DNA from: Liolophura sinensis
Lineage: Eukaryota; Mollusca; Polyplacophora; Chitonida; Chitonidae
Assembly: GCF_032854445.1 (NCBI RefSeq)
Contig: NC_088300.1
Span: 66,376,984 to 66,440,983, forward strand
Reading direction: 5' to 3'
DNA length: 64,000 bases
Shown in pieces: positions 6,265 through 64,000 of this stretch. A program made the position numbers and the translations under genes. Under the pieces are notes generated by a model. It did no database searches. It had not been told where the DNA came from and saw nothing but the letters and a program-made list of their open reading frames with translations. Each line of letters opens with the position of its first letter. Position 1 is the stretch's first letter.

Positions 6265-6600
6265 AAAATTGGACATAGAACCCTCTGTGAGAGGAGCGAA
6301 AAAGCATTCGCTAGGAGAGGAGCGAAAGTGTAAGCTACAGAACCGGCTGGGAGAGAACTAACAAGTAGAAAACCCACAAAATAACCAGTGAACCCTCTGG
6401 GAGAGGAGCAAAATTGTCGTACACAGAACCAGCTGGGAGAGAGGTGCGAAAATTTCGGACATAGAACCAGCTGGAAAAGAAGCGAAAATGCCGGACATAG
6501 AACCCGCTGGAAAAGAAGCGAAAATGCCAGACATAGAACCCGCTGGAAAAGAAGCGAAAATGCCGGACATAGAACCCGCTGGGAGAAGAGCGAAAACGTA
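6265..6600. repeat. 36-bp minisatellite
   Basis: About nine tandem units of 36 bp, best preserved at 6455-6590, each carrying AACCCGCTGGAAAAGAAGCG and a GAAAATGCCGGACAT segment. The left units (from about 6265) are more diverged. The unit length is a multiple of three, so a 12-residue repeat (GHRTRWKRSENA) stays open on the plus strand and a similar one on the minus strand. No start context or flanking exons suggest it is translated. Confidence 0.85.
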
Positions 6601-7179
6601 GATCACTGAACTAGCTGCAAGTAACGTATTTTTATTGTATAGTCAGTAGTTTGCACTCGTTGGGGGTAGTAGACAGCGTAGAATCTATTTTCAAGAAGAA
6701 AATAGGAATTAACAAAGTTCATAGCTGGAGACGAATGTGCGTACACAATCGAAGGCCGAGTTCCGCCTCCACCACGCAATAAGAGGTATCGTGATTTAAT
6801 CAGCGGTAGACCAACTGGGCCGTCTAGACCATGATCTATGGTGTCACGATGATAGACACGGGCCTGTGGGAGGTCGGCAATGATGCCAGACTAACATAAT
6901 ATCGTCACACAGACACTAATTATTAACTCTTCACTGCTTATATGTGTATAACTATGCATGTTTACCAAAATGCATCACGCCGTATCTCCTGTTGCTTTCG
7001 GTTTAGAGCCATTCGTGTAATGAAACCTCGCCATTATAGGTAAATATATATATAAAGATGAATTAAGCGAGGCAATTGATGACATTCCACGAGAAGCCTA
7101 TGTATAAGAGCTGTTAATTTTATATTCTATATCCCTCGTGGCTGGGAATATTGATGTGATGGTATGTATGTAAGCTTGC

Positions 7180-22758: not shown

Positions 22759-25700
22759 CTGGAAGAATTAAAAAATGTGACCTTAGTATTACACGCATTA
22801 CTATTAAGACACACAACTTCAATGATTAAATGATTGCTTTGTGTACCATATTTTACAAACATTTTCCTCATAAAACCGGAAAAAATTCAAACTAGAATAT
22901 GCTAGCTGTGACACAAGTCTTCTGTGGCTTGTGCAATTTCTACCTGGCGAAACTCTTGTGACAACATACAGTGAACAGGTGTGTCACCACGGATTAGTAA
23001 ATGCCCTTGCAACAGACTCAGCATTTTCCACGGGCCCCTGAAGACTTATTGAAACCAATAAAACAAGCATTCTGGAAGTACTGTATTAACCCTAATGGTT
23101 TCAACCAAGAAAATAATAGCTGTCTCTGCTAGTTCAAATTTGACACAACCTAATGATGTATGTACAAGTAGGCCTAGTGATAAGAAAGCAAAAACTGTTG
23201 AGTTACCTGTGGTGACCCAGCCAGCGACACAGGCACGGGAATGGTGATGTACTGCTGAGAACCTGGGCAATAACACAAGTGCCGCACATGTTTCATAAAC
23301 AATATTATATTATATATAATGTCATATTATAATTGTAGGTTAAAACATGGCATTTAAGCTTAATTTTTTTACACCTGTTTAGATACAGACACATTTCCTT
23401 TGCAGGATAAAGTTTTCCTCTGAAGTAAAACATGATTTTTCCGATGATATAGGATCGGTTTATGGTTTATTTCAATTCAGGGCTTGAAAGCTGACTTACA
23501 CATCTGACTTATGTCTACAGGCCGGGACAGATTGAACAGACATGAATAAATCACATTAGCATACAGTAGGGAAAATGGACAAAAATGAGCCGTAAACTAC
23601 CCTTATCCCATATGCTATACTTTTAACATTTGTAAGTTATGATTATAATGATGGCCAAACAACATAACTATTAGCACTAGTGGGCTTCTGCAGCCTGAAA
23701 AGCTCTCTAAAATCCCTTTCAAACCAAAAGTAAATGCTTTTAATATAATACTATGCTTAGATTTCTTACCAGCTTGTTGTTCTGGTTGGGCTAATGATAA
23801 TGCTGTGGCAGGCTGTTGAAAATTAAATATAGATCCATCAGGCAGAGTGGCTGTAGTGGGCGTAGCATACACGACCCCCTGAGGGGTCTGGTACATGACA
23901 ATTCCTGGGGTCATGGCTGGATTACTGTTAGTTGTGGGTACACCAGTACCCCCTTGAACACAACACGAAGACAGTAACTAGTTTTACCACTAATATCTAC
24001 ATGTATTTATTTATTTATCTGATCAATTGGCATTTTACACCGAGCTCAAGAATATTTCACTTATATGATGGTGGCCAGCATTGTGGTGGGTGGAAACCAG
24101 GCTGAGCCCAAGACCATCCGCAGGCCAATCAAATAAAACATGAAATACCTACAAGTAATTAATGCCCATTTGCATGAGTTTGTAATGAACCAGGCATATG
24201 TTTAACCATGTAGCACTTATTAATCTGATTTGTTTTAAATGCTGTACTCAAGAATATTTCCATTAATCAAGAACAGTCAGTTTTATGGGTGGAGGAATCC
24301 ATTCTTTTCCTGTGAAAACCACCAGCACTTTCGTATTTATCTGATAAACTTCCCGAGTTAAAGCCACAGCCTAACATATCTGAACTGTTCCGTGAGATAC
24401 AGTTCCGGCAGCACAAATCCCACTTCTCAATGTGGGCTTTCTTCAAAATGACAGAAGTGACTCATGAACACTAACGTAAATCTCCCCCTAAAGCATGATT
24501 TCGCCTTATATGAATTTCATGCTTAATTTCTCATAATCTACAAATCAGCTTCAGTGAGAACAATGTTTAAAATACCTTGAAAGTGAACTACAAAGTAATT
24601 TGACTACAGTAAACAAAGTATTGAATTAACCTTTACACTGAAGTTATAGACCAAGGGAGGTAACTCTTCTTATTTACTGGTACGATAATGTCCCAAGCCA
24701 TTCATATAAAGCATCTTACTTCCTGTCTCATAATCTGTTTCGCTGAATTTTGTGTTTTTGTTATAAGTTTGGTACCCAATCATACAAACTTACCTTGAAG
24801 AATGTTAACATTTGATGAGATGGAAGTCCCCAGGTTTGACAGCGACTGCCCTGTATCCGTGGTTACAGTGTTTTGCTGTAAAGCGCCGCCTGTACAGAAG
24901 TGTGAATCTTGATTACTATCAAGGGGAAATACTTAAGCACATCAATATTCTTGATTTTCAGAAGACATTGGTCTGTCAGCATATACAAATAGGATTTTAT
25001 TTATTTTATTTCTTTGACTGGTGGTTTACTCAAGAATATTTCCCTTATATGACGGCGGCCAGCACTACGGTGGGAGAAAACCAGGCACAGCCCTGGGAAA
25101 ACCCACAACCATCCGCAGGTTGCTGGAAGACACCATGGTTTTGAAAGCATGGTATGACTAAACTTACAAAAAGTATTATTATTTACACAGGCTACTTATT
25201 TATTTGACCCTTCTGAAGAATTAAATACATATATAAATACACCTCTATAAATGTATAACTAATATATCGAGGGTATTACACAGTGAAGGTTGAATATCAT
25301 GTATATTTTCTGAGTGAGAGGTGAAACTGATAAAACTGATTAAACTTGTATTATAACGTGCCTTCGCTGAGCTTGGATTGGAACAAAATGTTTTGACAAA
25401 ATGTAGAAACAAAAGTGATATCACTTCTATCAGTGAAGGAAATCCTGACATTTCACCTTTATATAAAATAACAAAGTCTGATGGTTTACAAATTCATATC
25501 AAGTTTTTTTCTTTAGTCTAATTTTTTTTCTTTGCAGTAGCACAACCTCTTTATAATAGCTAACATACTTATCACATATTATAAAGTTTATTGCACTTTT
25601 TTACTAGAAACAATTTGTTCAAAGCGCCAGTTACCTTCCAGCTAGCCATAAGAAACCTTCCGTGTTGAACTTACCTTGTAGAGAGACAACTTGGTTAGGT

Positions 25701-28700
25701 GTAGGGATTCGATACAGCGTCTGCTGCTGAGGTTGGGAGATCTGCGAAGTATTCTGTTGTACAGGGATTGTGATGGGTGCACCTACAAGGCAACAAAAGT
25801 GAACTGAGTATTCTGTTGTACAGGGATTGTGATGGGTGCACCTACAAAGCAACAGAAGCGAACTGAGTATTCTGTTGTACAGGGATTGTGATGGATGCAC
25901 CGGCCAGGCAACAGAAGCGAACTGAGTATTCTGTTGTACAGGGATTGTGATGGGTGCACCGGCGAGGCAACAGAAGCGAACTGAGTATTCTGTTGTACAG
26001 GGATTGTGATGGATGCACCAGCGAGGCAACAGAAGCGAACTGGGTATTCTGTTGTACAGGGATTGTGATGGGTGCACCTACAAGGCAACAAAAGCGAACT
26101 GAGTATTCTGTTGTACAGGGATTGTGATGGGTGCACCGGCGAGGCAACAGAAGCGAACTGAGTATTCTGTTGTACAGGGATTGTAATGGGTGCACCTACA
26201 AGGCAACAAAAGCGAACTGAGTATTCTGTTGTACAGGGATTGTGATGGATGCACCGGCGAGGCAACAGAAGCGAACTGAGTATTCTGTTGTACCGGGATT
26301 GTGATGGCTGCACCAGTAAGATAACAAAATAAATTGAGTATTCTACTGAACAGGGATTGTAATGGGTTCACCAGATAGGTATCAAAGTAAACTGAGTATT
26401 CTATTGTACAGGGATTGTGACTGGTGCACCAGTAAGATAACAAAATAAACTGAGTAATCTATTGTACAGGGATCGTGATGGGTGCACCTACAAGGCAACA
26501 AAAGCGAAATGAGTATTCTGTTGTACTGGGATTGTGATGGCTGCACCAGTAAGATAACAAAATAAACTGAGTATTCTATTGTACAGGGAATGTGATGGGT
26601 GCACCTACAAGGCAACAAAAGCGAAATGAGTATTCTGTTGTACAGGGATTGTGACTGGTGCACCATTATTCTGAGTATTCTATTGAACAGGGATTGTCAT
26701 GGGTGCACCTGCAAAGCAACAGAAGCGAACTGAGTATTCTGTTGTACCGGGATTGTGACTGGTACACCATTATTCTGAGTATTCTATTGAACAGGGATTG
26801 TAATGGGTGCACCTGCAAGGCAACAGAAGCGAACTGACTATTCTGTTGTACAGGGATTGTAATGGGTTCACCAGATAGGTATCAAAGTAAACTGAGTATT
26901 CTGTTGTACAGGGATTGTGACTGGTGCACCATTATTCTGAGTATTCTATTGAACAGGGATTGTAATGGGTGCACCTGCAAAGCAACAGAAGCGAACTGAG
27001 TATTCTGTTGTACCGGGATTGTAACTGGTGCACCATTATTCTGAGTATTCTATTGAACAGGGATTGTAATGGGTGCACCTGCAAAGCAACAGAAGCGAAC
27101 TGAGTATTCTGTTGTACCGGGATTGTAACTGGTGCGCCATTATTCTGAGTATTCTATTGAACAGGGATTGTAATGGGTGCACCTGCAAGGCAACAGAAGC
27201 GAACTGACTATTCTGTTGTACAGAGATTGTAATGGGTTCACCAGATAGGTATCAAAGTAAACTGAGTATTCTATTGTACAGGGATTGTGACTGGTGCACC
27301 AGTAAGGTAAGAAATTGAGTATTATGTTGACTATCTAAAAGTTACATTAACATGTACTGTAAATTGCAGTGCATTCAATGGTCCATTAGTACTAGATAAG
27401 CCAAGGTAGAGACAAATGAGAAGGATATCCATAACTGAATTCATCTGATTGCTGTTTAATGTCATACTCAAGAATTTTTCATCTTTACAATGGCTGTCAG
27501 TTTCTTGGTTCGAGGAAACTCAAGTGCCAGAAGTAAATCACCCACCACTGGCAAATTACAAACAAACTTAATCACTTGTAATGTACATAGCATATTAGCA
27601 TATAAGGCAAGCAGCGTTTTACTTTATATATTGTAGTACCTTGTTGTATGATAGCTGTAATGCCCCCTGTTGGAAGCTGCATCGACATATTCCCAGATTT
27701 GGAGGACGCAGTGCTGGTGCTGACAGTGGACGCATTTGACAGGGTGTAGGAGCTAGCAGAGGACATGTAAGGTTGAGTGGAGGTGTAAGACTGACCCCCA
27801 GTGATCTGTACTGATACAGGCTGAGCAGTCTGCAGCTGGGTGGCTGTAGGCGTGATGGTCTGGGCCTGCATCAGCTGATGCTCCCCACCCCCAGTGCTGA
27901 TCATCTGACCCGGAATGGCTGTGTAGATCCCATGTTTAATGCCCTGCAATTCACCAGCCTGAAACAAGGGAGAAAACTCTGATTATTTTATGAAAAGCAT
28001 TTATTTTATATTTGACTTGTTTTTCAAGTCAAGAAATTTTCAAATAAAAAATGATCAATTTCATGGCTAGGGATCCCATGTTCAATGCCATATAATTCAT
28101 AAGCCTCAAACAAGGGAGACAATTATGTGATCTTCTTATGAAAAGTACATGTAATGCTTTGACTTATTTCATCGCTGTATAATGCCACACTTTAATAAAT
28201 TTTCAATTATATTTTATGGGGTGAGGCAACTGAAGTGACCAGGGTAAATCATCAGCCTTTGGCAACCTTAGCTACAGGAGAGTTGTGATTTACAGATACG
28301 CACACCATATATAGGTGGAACTGACTGCTGAAATGGTCACACAAGCCTTGCTAAGCTTTTATTGTCACCAACAGCTAACAAACAGTAAGAGACAGTATGC
28401 CCCTGCCAATGGCTAGGATTGAATCCCGACCCTTTATGAGCTAACAATTCAGCACTCCGCCACAATCAACTACCATGAAAACTGGGAAGTAAAATCTTTT
28501 TAGGTCACCAGTAACAGCAAAATTGAAAAGGCACTGACAGTTTCACTTTATACATCCTTCAACAGTGAATTGTTCTAAGCTTTCAATAAACAGGAGTATC
28601 CGGACTGTTGTTTGAACATTTCTCACTATGGACAGTGAGTTGTTGATGACATCTGAGCAGATAACAACATATCAAATGCAGGAAAGCCTAAAAATATACA

Positions 28701-37700: not shown

Positions 37701-39283
37701 AAATACCAAACAATAATTTGAGGACGGGTCCCAAATTAGGTTACTCCTTTTACCTTTGTTTCTTCTTCATTGACAGCATAGGAAAGTTCTGTTTCTTCAA
37801 AGCCGGTGGGGTTCATGCGCTGGTCTATGGCTTGCTGGGTGCCGGGCACATTGGGCTGTTCAGGAGAGTTAAGGCAGGTCTGTATCAAGGCTTTCCCACT
37901 TTCACTGGTGATCATGGGCTGGAGTTTGCGGGTGGCGAAAGTGTAAACATGTCCAGTCTCACTGGCCACGAGTAACATCACCTGGGTTCCGGTCAATGTC
38001 GACAATTCATATGCCTGGTTAAACAGAACAGGCGGTCAATTTCTATTAAAAATCAAACTGACTTCTACATCCCATTATTCGTTATTCAGCAGATATAAGA
38101 ATAATCTAGAGAAACACTGTGATATGTAATGACGTACAACAAAACATGTTGATTAAAATGTTAACTTTCAAGGTAAAATATTTGAACACAGTTACTTTTT
38201 CAAAACTATTATTCCTACACACATACATACATACCAAAATAACATAAGTTGAACTTGCATCATAAAAAACAACTTTAAGAGTACCAATAACATCATTCTA
38301 AAATTAGAAATAAGAAAAAAAAGTACAATGTAATTTACTCAACATAAATTTGAGTAAAGTTTGTGCTCCCAAATAAACAATCAGCTTTAATGATAAGCAT
38401 TTTGCAGAAGTAAAGGATACTACATGCTACAGGTGTAACTGACACTAACTTAGAGAAAATATTTTACATAAGAAATATGCAATACTATAAGTACATTCTA
38501 AATCAAAATGTTACTTAAACTTTACAACATATAGTTAGACATTCCCAAATTACTCTCTCCATGTTGCAGTGGAAGCAATCAGAACAGCTAGTTCTAAGCA
38601 ACATCCAAACAACGTAGTAAATGGAACACTACTTGTTTATATTATATCTATAATCGTACAAAAACAAAGTTGATCGACTTTTATAGCCACAGAAAAATCT
38701 AGAACGCAACTTTTTTCTTAGGTTATCTTGAGGACTCAAACGACAAGTCTGACCTGATTTTACCATTACTATCATCTACAGTGATTACTAAATACTCTAA
38801 GTCACGCACATAAAATGCATACCACACCTACAATTCTACATCACTTTGCGTTTCAAAACGCGTGACTCTTTAAAGTTTGTTTACCTTTTTCATTATGCCC
38901 GTTTTACGCTTGCTAAAAGTCGTGTACCGTCGAAGTTTGTTTTCAATAAACTCCATTTTAATCTTGACTCTGCCTTTTGTTTTCTTGCCCGGTTTGAGTC
39001 CGGTTGGTGCCCCATCCTGGCCCTGGGAGAGCTGTGCGTGCTGTCCCCCGATGACAGGTCCCTTGGACAGCCGCCCGGCCCCTCCCCCTCCTTCCGAGTC
39101 GGAGTCGGAATCGTCGTCCAAACCAGGGTTTTCCATGATCATAGTAACATTCCCTTTCAAGCCTTCGTTTGTCGGAGTAGTTTGAAGCACGGGACGGTTG
39201 ACATTCGCCCCATTCAAGCTGTCCTGTCCAATGTTTGCCTTATTGATCGTTACTAGGCCACCACTGTTCCGCAAATTCTGCAT
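22672..39283 (-). CDS. SRF: Serum response factor, complete 8-exon coding region
   Basis: MADS-box transcription factor that binds CArG boxes, CC(A/T)6GG, as a dimer in the nucleus and recruits ternary-complex and MRTF cofactors. Coding exons: 39283-38885, 38014-37754, 27958-27640, 25782-25675, 24889-24794, 23952-23770, 23262-23207, 22758-22672. Their sum is 1509 nt (502 aa plus stop), close to the 508 aa of human SRF. All introns are GT-AG and all phases agree (0, 0, 1, 1, 1, 1, 0). Residues 1-103 hold a Ser/Asp/Gly stretch (DDDSDSDSEGGGG). The MADS box and dimerisation region (about 104-195) are nearly invariant relative to vertebrate SRF, with RVKIKMEFIENKLRRY and KRKTGIMKK, then LVASETGHVYTFATRKLQPM. 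Exon 2 ends with the family's GFEET motif. Exons 3-8 encode a Gln/Ser/Thr/Pro-rich transactivation region ending AKKSRK. Intron 2 spans 9.8 kb. The acceptor of exon 4 is amplified in tandem. Confidence 0.95.
23207..23262 (-). CDS. SRF: SRF coding exon 7
   Basis: 56 nt, phase 1 to 0. Acceptor TATTGCCCAG, donor CCACAG/GTAACT. Encodes SQQYITIPVPVSLAGSPQ, similar to the VQIPVSAVQL segment near the vertebrate SRF C-terminus. Confidence 0.85.
23770..23952 (-). CDS. SRF: SRF coding exon 6
   Basis: 183 nt, phase 1 to 1. Acceptor GTGTTCAAG, donor CAAGCTG/GTAAGA. Encodes PGIVMYQTPQGVVYATP and LPDGSIFNFQQPA, which parallels the MMYPSPHAVMYAPTS / GDGSLTVLNAF segment of vertebrate SRF. Confidence 0.9.
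24005..24130 (-). repeat. SINE family 1, partial, in SRF intron 5
   Basis: TTTATTTATTTAT tail followed by CTCAAGAATATTTCACTTAT, GATGGTGGCCAGCATTG and CCATCCGCAGG. The tRNA-like part is absent. A second, more eroded copy follows at about 24227-24330. Confidence 0.75.
24794..24889 (-). CDS. SRF: SRF coding exon 5
   Basis: 96 nt, phase 1 to 1. Acceptor TTCTGTACAG, donor CTTCAAG/GTAAGT. It encodes a Ser/Thr/Asn-rich stretch from GALQQNTVTTDTGQS to NVNILQ. It is symmetric and could be skipped without a frameshift. Confidence 0.9.
24994..25135 (-). repeat. SINE family 1, partial, in SRF intron 4
   Basis: ACTCAAGAATATTTCCCTTA, GACGGCGGCCAGCACTACGG and CCATCCGCAGGTTGCTGG blocks in the order seen in the full-length copy at 53810-54086. 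Confidence 0.8.
25675..25782 (-). CDS. SRF: SRF coding exon 4
   Basis: 108 nt, phase 1 to 1. Acceptor CCTTGTAG before GTGCACCC; donor CTACAAG/GTAAGT. It encodes GAPITIPVQQNTSQISQPQ and continues to NQVVSLQ. Its first 36 nt are the exon-derived part of the tandem array at 25748-27326. Confidence 0.9.
25748..27326 (-). repeat. Tandem array of the SRF intron 3/exon 4 boundary
   Basis: About 28 head-to-tail units, mostly 58-59 bp with some 45-bp deletion variants. Read on the minus strand, each unit is GTGCACCCATCACAATCCC, TGTACAACAGAATACTCAG, then a pyrimidine-leaning stretch such as TTCGCTTCTGTTGCCTTGTAG-type ending before the next GTGCACC. The first part equals the start of SRF exon 4 and the second equals its splice acceptor. 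About 11 units keep an intact AG before GTGCACC (CTTGTAG, TTTGTAG or TTTGCAG types). The others read GCCGG, GCTGG or ACTGG, lacking AG. Three reading frames stay open over long stretches because few stop codons occur in the unit other than the TAG of the acceptor. Confidence 0.92.
27640..27958 (-). CDS. SRF: SRF coding exon 3
   Basis: 106 codons plus one base (phase 1). Acceptor TTTCAG before GCTGGTGAA; donor CAACAAG/GTACTA. Gln/Ser/Thr-rich, starting AGELQGIKHG and ending ITAIIQQ, typical of the transactivation region. Confidence 0.9.
27959..37753. other. SRF: SRF intron 2 (9.8 kb)
   Basis: No exon that fits the phase-0 junction is evident. Contents: SINE family 1 pieces (28882-29023, 29088-29150, 33055-33150), poly-C (about 30430-30449) and poly-G (about 35335-35351) runs, and GC-richer unique stretches at 30540-30800 and 32430-32760 whose role is unclear. 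Long first or second introns of transcription factor genes often carry enhancers, but nothing here proves one. Confidence 0.7.
28882..29023 (-). repeat. SINE family 1 with internal deletion
   Basis: The tail part (TACTCAAGAATATTTCACTT) is joined directly to the tRNA-like part (GGTGAGAGAATCCTGGGTCA, then GCGCTAACCAACTGAGCCAC). The middle of the element is missing. Confidence 0.8.
37754..38014 (-). CDS. SRF: SRF coding exon 2 (rest of MADS box and SAM region)
   Basis: 87 codons, AYELSTLTGTQV to NEEETK, between a TTAACCAG acceptor and a GTAAAA donor. It contains the dimerisation beta-strands (LLVASETGHVYTF) and GKALIQTCLNSP, hallmarks of SRF as opposed to MEF2. Confidence 0.95.
38666..38963 (-). 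repeat. Source copy of SRF exon 1 duplication
   Basis: The last 79 nt of SRF exon 1 with the adjacent ~219 nt of intron 1. Nearly identical to 40528-40813 (three substitutions and one 12-bp indel by eye). Confidence 0.9.
38885..39283 (-). CDS. SRF: SRF coding exon 1 (N-terminus and first half of MADS box)
   Basis: 133 codons from ATG to IMKK, followed by donor GTAAAC (phase 0). It splits the MADS box right after KRKTGIMKK. The last 79 nt and part of intron 1 are duplicated at 40528-40813. Confidence 0.95.
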
Positions 39284-39559
39284 CTTCCTGCTCCAAATTG
39301 GAATAATTTACCAAATACTCCGCTTGCTCATGTGGCTGCTCCGAAAAAGGCTATGTCAGCAGTTAATCGGCTGTGTACGCGCGCTATATCAAATAGTACG
39401 GCAGCCTTGTTTCGTCACTATTCGCTTCCCACGTTCAAAACGAACAGTGGCCTGATTAATTTATTGGTAAGTCAAAATGACTCGAATCAGATCAACATTG
39501 TTTATTAAAAGCGTTTATAACATCTGTCCGCGCTTTGGGCGGAGTGATATACATCTGGT

Positions 39560-63429: not shown

Positions 63430-64000
63430 TATATAATACATGTACCCATCTGCCTCAGTGCTGAACAATATGTACCCAAATGCTCCAGCACTAAGCAACT
63501 TGCAGCCTTCTGCTCCAACACTCAACAACATTTATCCCTCTGCTCCAGCACTAAACAACATGTATCCCTCTGCTCGAGTACTAAACAACATGTATCCTTC
63601 TGCTCCAGCACTAAACAACATGTATGCTTCTGCTCCAGCACTAAACAACGTATCCTTCTGCTCCAGCACTAAACAACGTGTATCCTCCTGCTCCAGCACT
63701 AAACAACATGTATCCTTGTGCTCCAGCACTAAACAACATGTATCCTTGTACTCCAGCACTCAACAACATGTATCCTCCTTCTCCAGCAGTAAACAACATA
63801 TATGCTCCAAGACTCAATAATGTATCCTGCTACAGTACTCAACATGTATCTTTCCGCTCCAATGCTCAACAACATGTATCGTTATGCTCCAGAACTCAAA
63901 AACATCAATTTTTTTGCTCCAACACTCAAAAACATGTATCCTTCTGCTCCAACACTCAACAACATGTATCCTTCTGCTCCAACACTCAACAACATGTATC
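63430..64000. repeat. 30-bp minisatellite, runs off the window edge
   Basis: About 18-19 units of ~30 bp with CTGCTCCAGCACTAAACAAC and ATGTATCCTT. Read on the plus strand it gives the repeat MYPSAPALNN, open because the unit is ten codons. Units are most regular between 63480 and 63790. It lies in an intron of the minus-strand gene, so translation is unlikely. Confidence 0.9.

What the first reader, a model, noticed from the sequence alone, without database searches (positions are those of the whole stretch)
25748..27326. A splice acceptor plus exon edge of SRF amplified into ~28 tandem copies
Seen directly: the unit joins the last ~23 nt of SRF intron 3, including the AG, to the first ~36 nt of exon 4. 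About 11 of ~28 units keep AG before GTGCACC; the rest lost it by substitution. Using unit 2 (exon start 25841), unit 6 (26077) or unit 8 (26195) instead of the real acceptor (25782) would add about 19, 77 or 136 residues and then stop at a TAG that is itself part of a downstream intact acceptor. Such products would keep the MADS box and lose most of the transactivation region. Vertebrate SRF isoforms lacking transactivation exons are known to act dominant-negatively. This could be a length-polymorphic splicing switch (an 'acceptor minisatellite'), or a neutral array whose weak acceptors compete with the true one.
Basis: partly seen in the sequence, partly recalled or inferred. Interest (0 to 1): 0.9.

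Follow-up and report, generated by a model that had tools for sequence, protein, structure and literature searches.

The report
Repeated splice acceptor in SRF gene
In what is most likely a chiton genome, the stretch where an intron of the SRF gene meets the next exon is present in 28 head-to-tail copies, of which only the last appears able to serve as the working splice site, making the locus a natural test of how cells pick one splice site among near-identical decoys.

Summary
On the minus strand, 28 tandem units (mostly 45, 58 or 59 nt) join the end of SRF intron 3 to the first 35 nt of exon 4; 11 of 28 keep AG. The unit matched at one place in the genome. Both array edges carry AATACT, pointing to tandem duplication by microhomology across the splice junction. 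Using any of the 10 upstream AG units gives an early stop at least 110 nt before the end of exon 4, so RNA decay is likelier than a stable dominant-negative protein. Among units the -5..-2 bases change most (14 changes, 1st of 54 windows; next 12). I read it as a tolerated minisatellite with partly disarmed decoys and the last unit (25782) as the real acceptor. A length-polymorphic splicing switch is possible but unsupported: no RNA or population data could be used. Duplications and VNTRs across intron-exon junctions (potato RdRp, RHD-psi, FAM20C) and tandem AGGT arrays (UBC) are known; the copy number, and the working site being a member of the array, make this a new variant of a known kind. 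Host: very probably the chiton Liolophura japonica.

The parts
25748..27323 (-). Array of 28 tandem units, each the intron-3 end plus the first 35 nt of exon 4
25783..25806 (-). Intron part of unit 1, the acceptor inferred to be in use: TAG, pyrimidine tract, TTCAC motif with A at -18
   Evidence: only AG unit whose use leaves the frame open
25675..25782 (-). SRF exon 4, 108 nt, phase 1-1, donor AAG|GTAAGT
   Evidence: genome match
27640..27958 (-). SRF exon 3, 319 nt, weak native donor AAG|GTACTA
25841..25841 (-). Unit 2 exon start, AG kept; use adds 19 residues then a stop
26077..26077 (-). Unit 6 exon start, AG kept; use adds 78 residues then a stop
26195..26195 (-). Unit 8 exon start, AG kept; use adds 137 residues then a stop
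26487..26604 (-). Span from the exon start of unit 13 (26487) to that of unit 15 (26604): both keep TAG and have a CTCAT branch-like motif at -23; stop after 9 residues
26708..27182 (-). Span of the exon starts of five CAG units (26708, 26812, 26974, 27078, 27182), with four AG-less 45-nt units and one AG-less 58-nt unit between them
27300..27323 (-). Intron-side edge: oldest position, acceptor now CTG; begins with AATACT
23770..23952 (-). SRF exon 5; its start and frame fix the phase of exon 4 (its end is read by eye)
37736..39307 (-). Region of the two exons that carry the SRF MADS box (exon 2 starts at 38014)

Best explanation
A tandem duplication across the SRF intron 3/exon 4 junction, mediated by the six bases AATACT present on both sides, created a second complete acceptor. 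Unequal exchange then grew the array to 28 units. Because the units shift the frame and bring stops, only the last unit (25782) among the AG-bearing ones can give full SRF protein, so that copy is kept by selection and is the working acceptor; the unit at the far edge, where the original acceptor was, now reads CTG. The upstream units are decoys that have partly lost acceptor quality, and any product that uses one is probably destroyed by nonsense-mediated decay. The array is mostly tolerated, perhaps costing a little SRF output. Shown: anatomy, edges, frames, variation pattern. Inferred: the duplication event, use of 25782, NMD, near-neutrality, growth by unequal exchange.
For: Edges and joins fit the AATACT model: intron edge CATAATACTCAA, exon edge CAGAATACTTCGC, and the hybrid AGAATACTCAG in 20 of 27 internal joins (printed, compared by eye). 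Only 1 of 11 AG units (25782) keeps the frame open through exon 4, and its frame agrees with exons 3 and 5. In the 23 long units -2 has the highest entropy of 57 columns while -1 is invariant. The -5..-2 window changes most of 54 windows, with the tree built without it (14 changes, median 5; 13, median 4, in the long units). The intron part is 2.8 times as diverse as the exon part, column-permutation p 0.0012. Ten of 28 units carry a TAG stop in the exon part, so many upstream units are not kept as coding sequence.
Against: No RNA evidence shows which acceptor is used. Units are related by duplication, so AG loss is few events (3-4 changes at -2), and p-values that treat columns as free are rough. 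An exon window (+8..+11) comes close, with 12 changes, and five single columns change more often than -2 when each is left out of its tree. The exon part shows a non-significant excess of synonymous variants (9 of 20, p 0.087), which could hint at past coding constraint. The pyrimidine tract is as rich in AG-less long units as in AG units (0.72-0.78), so decay is not general. Two AG decoys, at 26487 and 26604, keep a full branch-like motif. The intron-edge unit is 5-6 nt shorter than others between AATACT and the junction, which the model does not explain.
Confidence: 0.62

Rival explanations
1. Unproductive-splicing dial: upstream acceptors are used at appreciable, perhaps regulated, levels; every such product is a decay target, so repeat number and the state of the proximal units set SRF dosage.
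For: 10 of 10 upstream AG units lead to early stops. Proximal AG units 2, 6 and 8 differ from unit 1 at only 2-3 of 59 bases and have the same pyrimidine content. A review says the vertebrate SRF exon-3-less variant carries an early stop and undergoes decay (PMC9185982, passages).
Against: Frame-shifting units would give stops without selection: 16 of 17 AG-less starts also stop. The most changeable bases are those that define the acceptor. No RNA or polymorphism data.
Confidence: 0.17
2. Self-correcting re-splicing: when exon 3 joins an upstream unit, the junction AAG|GTGCAC is itself a donor about as good as the weak native one, so the transcript can be spliced again to a later AG|GT until the last unit is reached. 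The array then acts as dual-specific splice sites and is harmless to the mRNA.
For: All 11 AG units read AG|GT. Donor score of the rejoined junction 3.95 against 3.80 for the native donor, with a recalled human-like matrix. Tandem AGGT arrays are spliced this way in human UBC (PMC10809524: abstract and passages; section 8).
Against: GTGCAC lacks the usual GTRAGT bases, and both scores are low against 12.56 for the exon 4 donor; at least 12 of 126 other GT sites in intron 3 outscore the native donor, so the matrix says little. 17 of 28 units have lost AGGT.
Confidence: 0.12
3. Dominant-negative switch: truncated SRF with the MADS box but little activation region is made and acts.
For: Stops fall after the MADS exons. 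Vertebrate SRF forms lacking exon 5 are called dominant negative (PMC9185982, passages).
Against: Stops lie at least 110 nt before the exon 4 end, so the RNAs are probably decayed. The vertebrate forms lack whole exons; none of the passages read describes acceptor choice.
Confidence: 0.05
4. Assembly artefact.
For: HiFi coverage is only 14x (PMC11068029, passage), if that is the assembly.
Against: The array is 1.6 kb against a mean read of 8.3 kb; unit variants are position-specific and form higher-order repeats; one locus.
Confidence: 0.04

Closest known systems
Tandem duplication across an intron-exon boundary, potato RdRp gene (PMC4974935; search listing and passages)
   Same: The duplicate takes the 3' side of an intron plus the 5' side of the next exon, with branch site, pyrimidine tract and acceptor.
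   Different: One duplication that made a new intron; here 28 units, and by inference the old intron grew and its acceptor moved.
[quoted passage not shown] listing and passages)
   Same: The duplicate spans an acceptor and may give a frameshift and early stop.
   Different: A single duplication in an inactive allele; here many copies in a gene whose frame is open in the exons examined.
[quoted passage not shown] listings and passages)
   Same: A VNTR over an intron-exon junction, reported as affecting alternative splicing.
   Different: Its unit and mechanism were not read here; the primary paper (Simpson 2007) was not seen.
Dual-specific splice-site arrays, human UBC (PMC10809524; abstract, passages and section 8)
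   Same: AGGT in tandem units that could serve as acceptor or donor.
   Different: In UBC the spliced intron is a multiple of the unit and the units are coding; here the native intron starts outside the array and the unit shifts the frame.

Membership tests
Minisatellite / VNTR | Head-to-tail units of about 10-100 bp | tested here: met
Minisatellite / VNTR | Length polymorphism between individuals | not testable with these tools
   one assembly, one locus
[quoted passage not shown]
   28 of 28 units carry the junction-derived bases; in the five 45-nt units the intron part is cut to 10 nt
[quoted passage not shown]
   no RNA data
Acceptor-spanning tandem duplication (potato RdRp, RHD-psi) | Duplicate contains intron 3' end plus exon 5' end, with both parental edges visible | tested here: met
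Acceptor-spanning tandem duplication as intron gain | A new intron is created inside the duplicate | not testable with these tools
   needs junction reads
Dual-specific splice-site array (UBC-like) | AGGT in every unit | tested here: not met
   11 of 28
Dual-specific splice-site array (UBC-like) | Intron length is a multiple of the unit, with both ends in the repeat | tested here: not met
   inferred native donor at 27639 lies outside the array
Poison splice / NMD switch | Alternative acceptors lead to an early stop more than 55 nt before the exon end | tested here: met
   10 of 10 upstream AG units; NMD rule recalled
Poison splice / NMD switch | Used and regulated, or conserved between species | not testable with these tools
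   no RNA; no related animal genome held

The most novel reading that the evidence does not exclude
The array is a copy-number-tunable, self-correcting splice ladder: exon 3 first joins any of the AG|GT units, the junction regenerates a donor as good as the native one, and repeated re-splicing walks to the last unit; transcripts that stall are decayed, so repeat length sets the delay and the dose of SRF.
Probability: 0.08. Interest if true: 0.85.

Novelty: new variant of a known kind. Interest (0 to 1): 0.45.

Why it matters
Eleven near-identical AG acceptors, the real one included, lie within 1.4 kb in front of one exon of a gene for a major transcription factor. That is a natural experiment on how the spliceosome picks one acceptor, how fast decoys lose their acceptor bases, and whether repeat number alone can tune output. 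It also suggests that a working splice site can be replaced by a copy of itself and move about 1.5 kb downstream.

Tried and rejected
Coding repeat: the 45-nt unit alone keeps the frame, but neighbouring 59- and 58-nt units shift it, and 26 of 28 starts meet a stop. Rejected.

Alternative exon 3 donor (AAA|GTAAAA, 17 nt downstream, phase 0): by hand-reading the exon 5 sequence printed, the frame it would give meets a stop after 13 codons of exon 5; not scripted. Rejected.

Branch-motif rule (only the real acceptor has yUnAy): fails. AG units at 26487 and 26604 also have one, as do 6 of 17 AG-less units (A at -45..-15); exon 5's acceptor has none, and 42% of all AGs and 47% of pyrimidine-rich ones have one (A at -40..-15). 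Kept as weak only. The private base of unit 1 that makes the motif is one of 4 such changes among 177 possible; chosen after the fact.

Synonymous excess in the exon part: 9 of 20 against 0.286 expected, p 0.087; third codon positions more diverse, p 0.092. Not significant.

Transposon origin or another copy: one locus only (that search skips very common words and gives lower bounds). Literature searches with no hits. The script's edge-to-edge longest match picked up exon sequence shared by the units and so did not test AATACT; the AATACT inference is from the printed edges. The intron-edge unit aligns poorly at its left end in the unit alignment and was kept in the counts of 28 and 23. Branch-point and donor matrices are human-like and recalled, not from this species. 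Other AGs inside the units (CAACAG, CTCAG) were not tested as acceptors. Secondary structure was not tested. Related animal genomes are not held, so conservation was not tested. Two of my search strings (exon 1 and 2 edges) found nothing and its two coordinates there are void; searches show the sequences and give the start of exon 2.

Full report
What is there. On the minus strand, between SRF exon 3 (27958-27640) and exon 4 (25782-25675), lies an array of 28 tandem units at 25748-27323. A 59-nt unit has 24 nt with a pyrimidine tract and an acceptor-like end, followed by the first 35 nt of exon 4. Sixteen units are 59 nt, six are 58 nt, five are 45 nt, and the intron-edge unit merges with unique intron. 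AG is present in 11 of 28 (6 TAG, 5 CAG); the other 17 read CTG (8), ATG (5, the 45-nt units) or CCG (4). All 28 keep G at -1 and G at +1. The unit was found at one place in the 609-Mb genome (27 matches, all in the array; that search skips very common words and gives lower bounds).

The gene. The exons at 38870-39307 and 37736-38035 carry halves of the SRF-type MADS box (Pfam PF00319); the first also matches solved SRF 1hbx (E 1.3e-17). A peptide from exons 3-5 matches only this locus (three matches, one per exon), so SRF looks single copy; withheld stretches could hide another. Exon 4 is 108 nt, phase 1 at both ends, so skipping it would keep the frame. Exon 5 starts at 23952 after TTCAAG in the phase that exon 4 needs (read by eye).

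The organism. G000 has 609,464,459 bases in 632 contigs. The Liolophura japonica assembly is 609,495,693 bases in 632 scaffolds (PMC11068029, passages). The mitochondrial cox1 reads without stops in the invertebrate code. I take the host to be this chiton, by inference; the difference of 31,234 bases is unexplained.

Origin. The intron-side edge reads CATAATACTCAA, the exon-side edge CAGAATACTTCGC, and 20 of 27 internal joins read AGAATACTCAG, left part as at the exon edge and right part as at the intron edge (printed, compared by eye). This is what a tandem duplication between two AATACT sequences would leave, one shortly before the old acceptor and one at the end of the 35-nt exon part. AATACT ends 18 nt before the junction in the edge unit but 23-24 nt before it in the 58- and 59-nt units, a small indel that I cannot place in time. 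The join lies about where a branch point is expected (CTCAG, A at -23), so a copy can carry its own possible branch site, pyrimidine tract and acceptor. The edge unit, the oldest position, now ends in CTG: by inference, the original acceptor is dead and the working one is a copy 1,517 nt downstream.

Which unit works. Joining exon 3 to each of 28 starts, only 25782 (AG) and 25959 (CG, so not usable by the normal rule) read through to the end of exon 4. The other 26, including all 10 upstream AG units, hit a stop. For AG units the added residues are 19 (25841), 78 (26077), 137 (26195) and 9 (each of seven distal units). Stops of the AG units lie 110 nt or more before the last base of exon 4, so decay of the RNA is predicted (rule recalled).

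How units vary. Among 23 long units the A of AG (-2) has the highest entropy of 57 columns, and G at -1 never changes. With trees built without the columns tested, the -5..-2 window has the most changes of 54 windows (14, median 5; long units only 13, median 4). Results that weaken this: the exon window +8..+11 and the window -8..-5 reach 12; and with leave-one-out trees on all 28 units, +11 (6 changes), +27 and -7 (5 each), +20 and -3 (4 each) exceed -2 (3). The intron part is 2.8 times as diverse as the exon part (0.260 against 0.093 in long units; p 0.0012 by column permutation). Ten of 28 units carry a TAG stop at the tenth codon of the exon part, so many upstream exon parts are not kept as coding sequence; synonymous variants are 9 of 20, not significantly in excess. 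I read this as faster change at acceptor bases in the decoys. Shared ancestry of units makes the number of independent events small (3-4 at -2), so selection against decoys is suggested, not shown.

Strength. Pyrimidine content from -20 to -3 is 0.72-0.78 in the 23 long units, AG or not, and 0.33 in the five 45-nt units. A yUnAy motif with A at -45..-15 is present in 3 of 11 AG units: 25782 (TTCAC, A at -18), 26487 and 26604 (CTCAT, -23); and in 6 of 17 AG-less units. The rate upstream of any AG in the window is 42% (3031 of 7246), and 47% (191 of 410) for pyrimidine-rich ones; of three other SRF acceptors, two have the motif. So unit 1 is distinguished from proximal decoys 2, 6 and 8, but weakly. 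Eleven of 25 pyrimidine-rich AGGT sites on the minus strand of the whole window are in this array.

Re-splicing. If exon 3 joins an upstream unit, the junction AAG|GTGCAC scores 3.95, against 3.80 for the native donor AAG|GTACTA and 12.56 for the exon 4 donor (recalled human-like matrix). At least 12 of 126 GT sites within intron 3 score above the native donor, so the matrix has little power here. A wrong join could in principle be spliced again. Such use of tandem AGGT sites is known in UBC (PMC10809524). There is no direct evidence here.

Known kinds. Duplications across an intron-exon boundary are described in potato RdRp (PMC4974935, passages) and RHD-psi (PMC4490371, passages), and a VNTR over an intron-exon junction in FAM20C (PMC5941971, passages). 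I found no report of a high-copy acceptor minisatellite whose last unit is the working site; my searches cover only open PMC papers and narrow word sets. Dominant-negative SRF forms in vertebrates are variants that lack exon 5, alone or with neighbours (PMC9185982, passages).

Verdict. Real, unusual anatomy; most likely a tolerated minisatellite with partly disarmed decoys; a dosage dial or re-splicing ladder remains open and can be tested with published RNA-seq.

Noticed in passing
6390-6602: A 36-bp minisatellite whose minus strand repeats TTTTCGCTTCTTTTCCAG in its best-conserved units, which also looks like an acceptor; no exon was tied to it.
   Followed up: partly
63438-64000: 30-bp repeats, open in one frame for part of the array as NMYPSAPALN-like peptides, running to the window end.
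   Followed up: partly
G000:C99 (L007, L008): cox1 appears seven times at about 15.5-kb spacing on one contig and once on C632, so the mitochondrial genome is probably assembled as a head-to-tail concatemer.
   Followed up: partly
27639: The inferred native donor of SRF exon 3 (AAG|GTACTA) is very weak by a recalled human-like matrix (3.80 against 12.56 for exon 4).
   Followed up: partly
26629-27182: Higher-order structure: 104-nt dimers of a CAG unit and a 45-nt unit, so AG-bearing and AG-less units alternate.
   Followed up: partly
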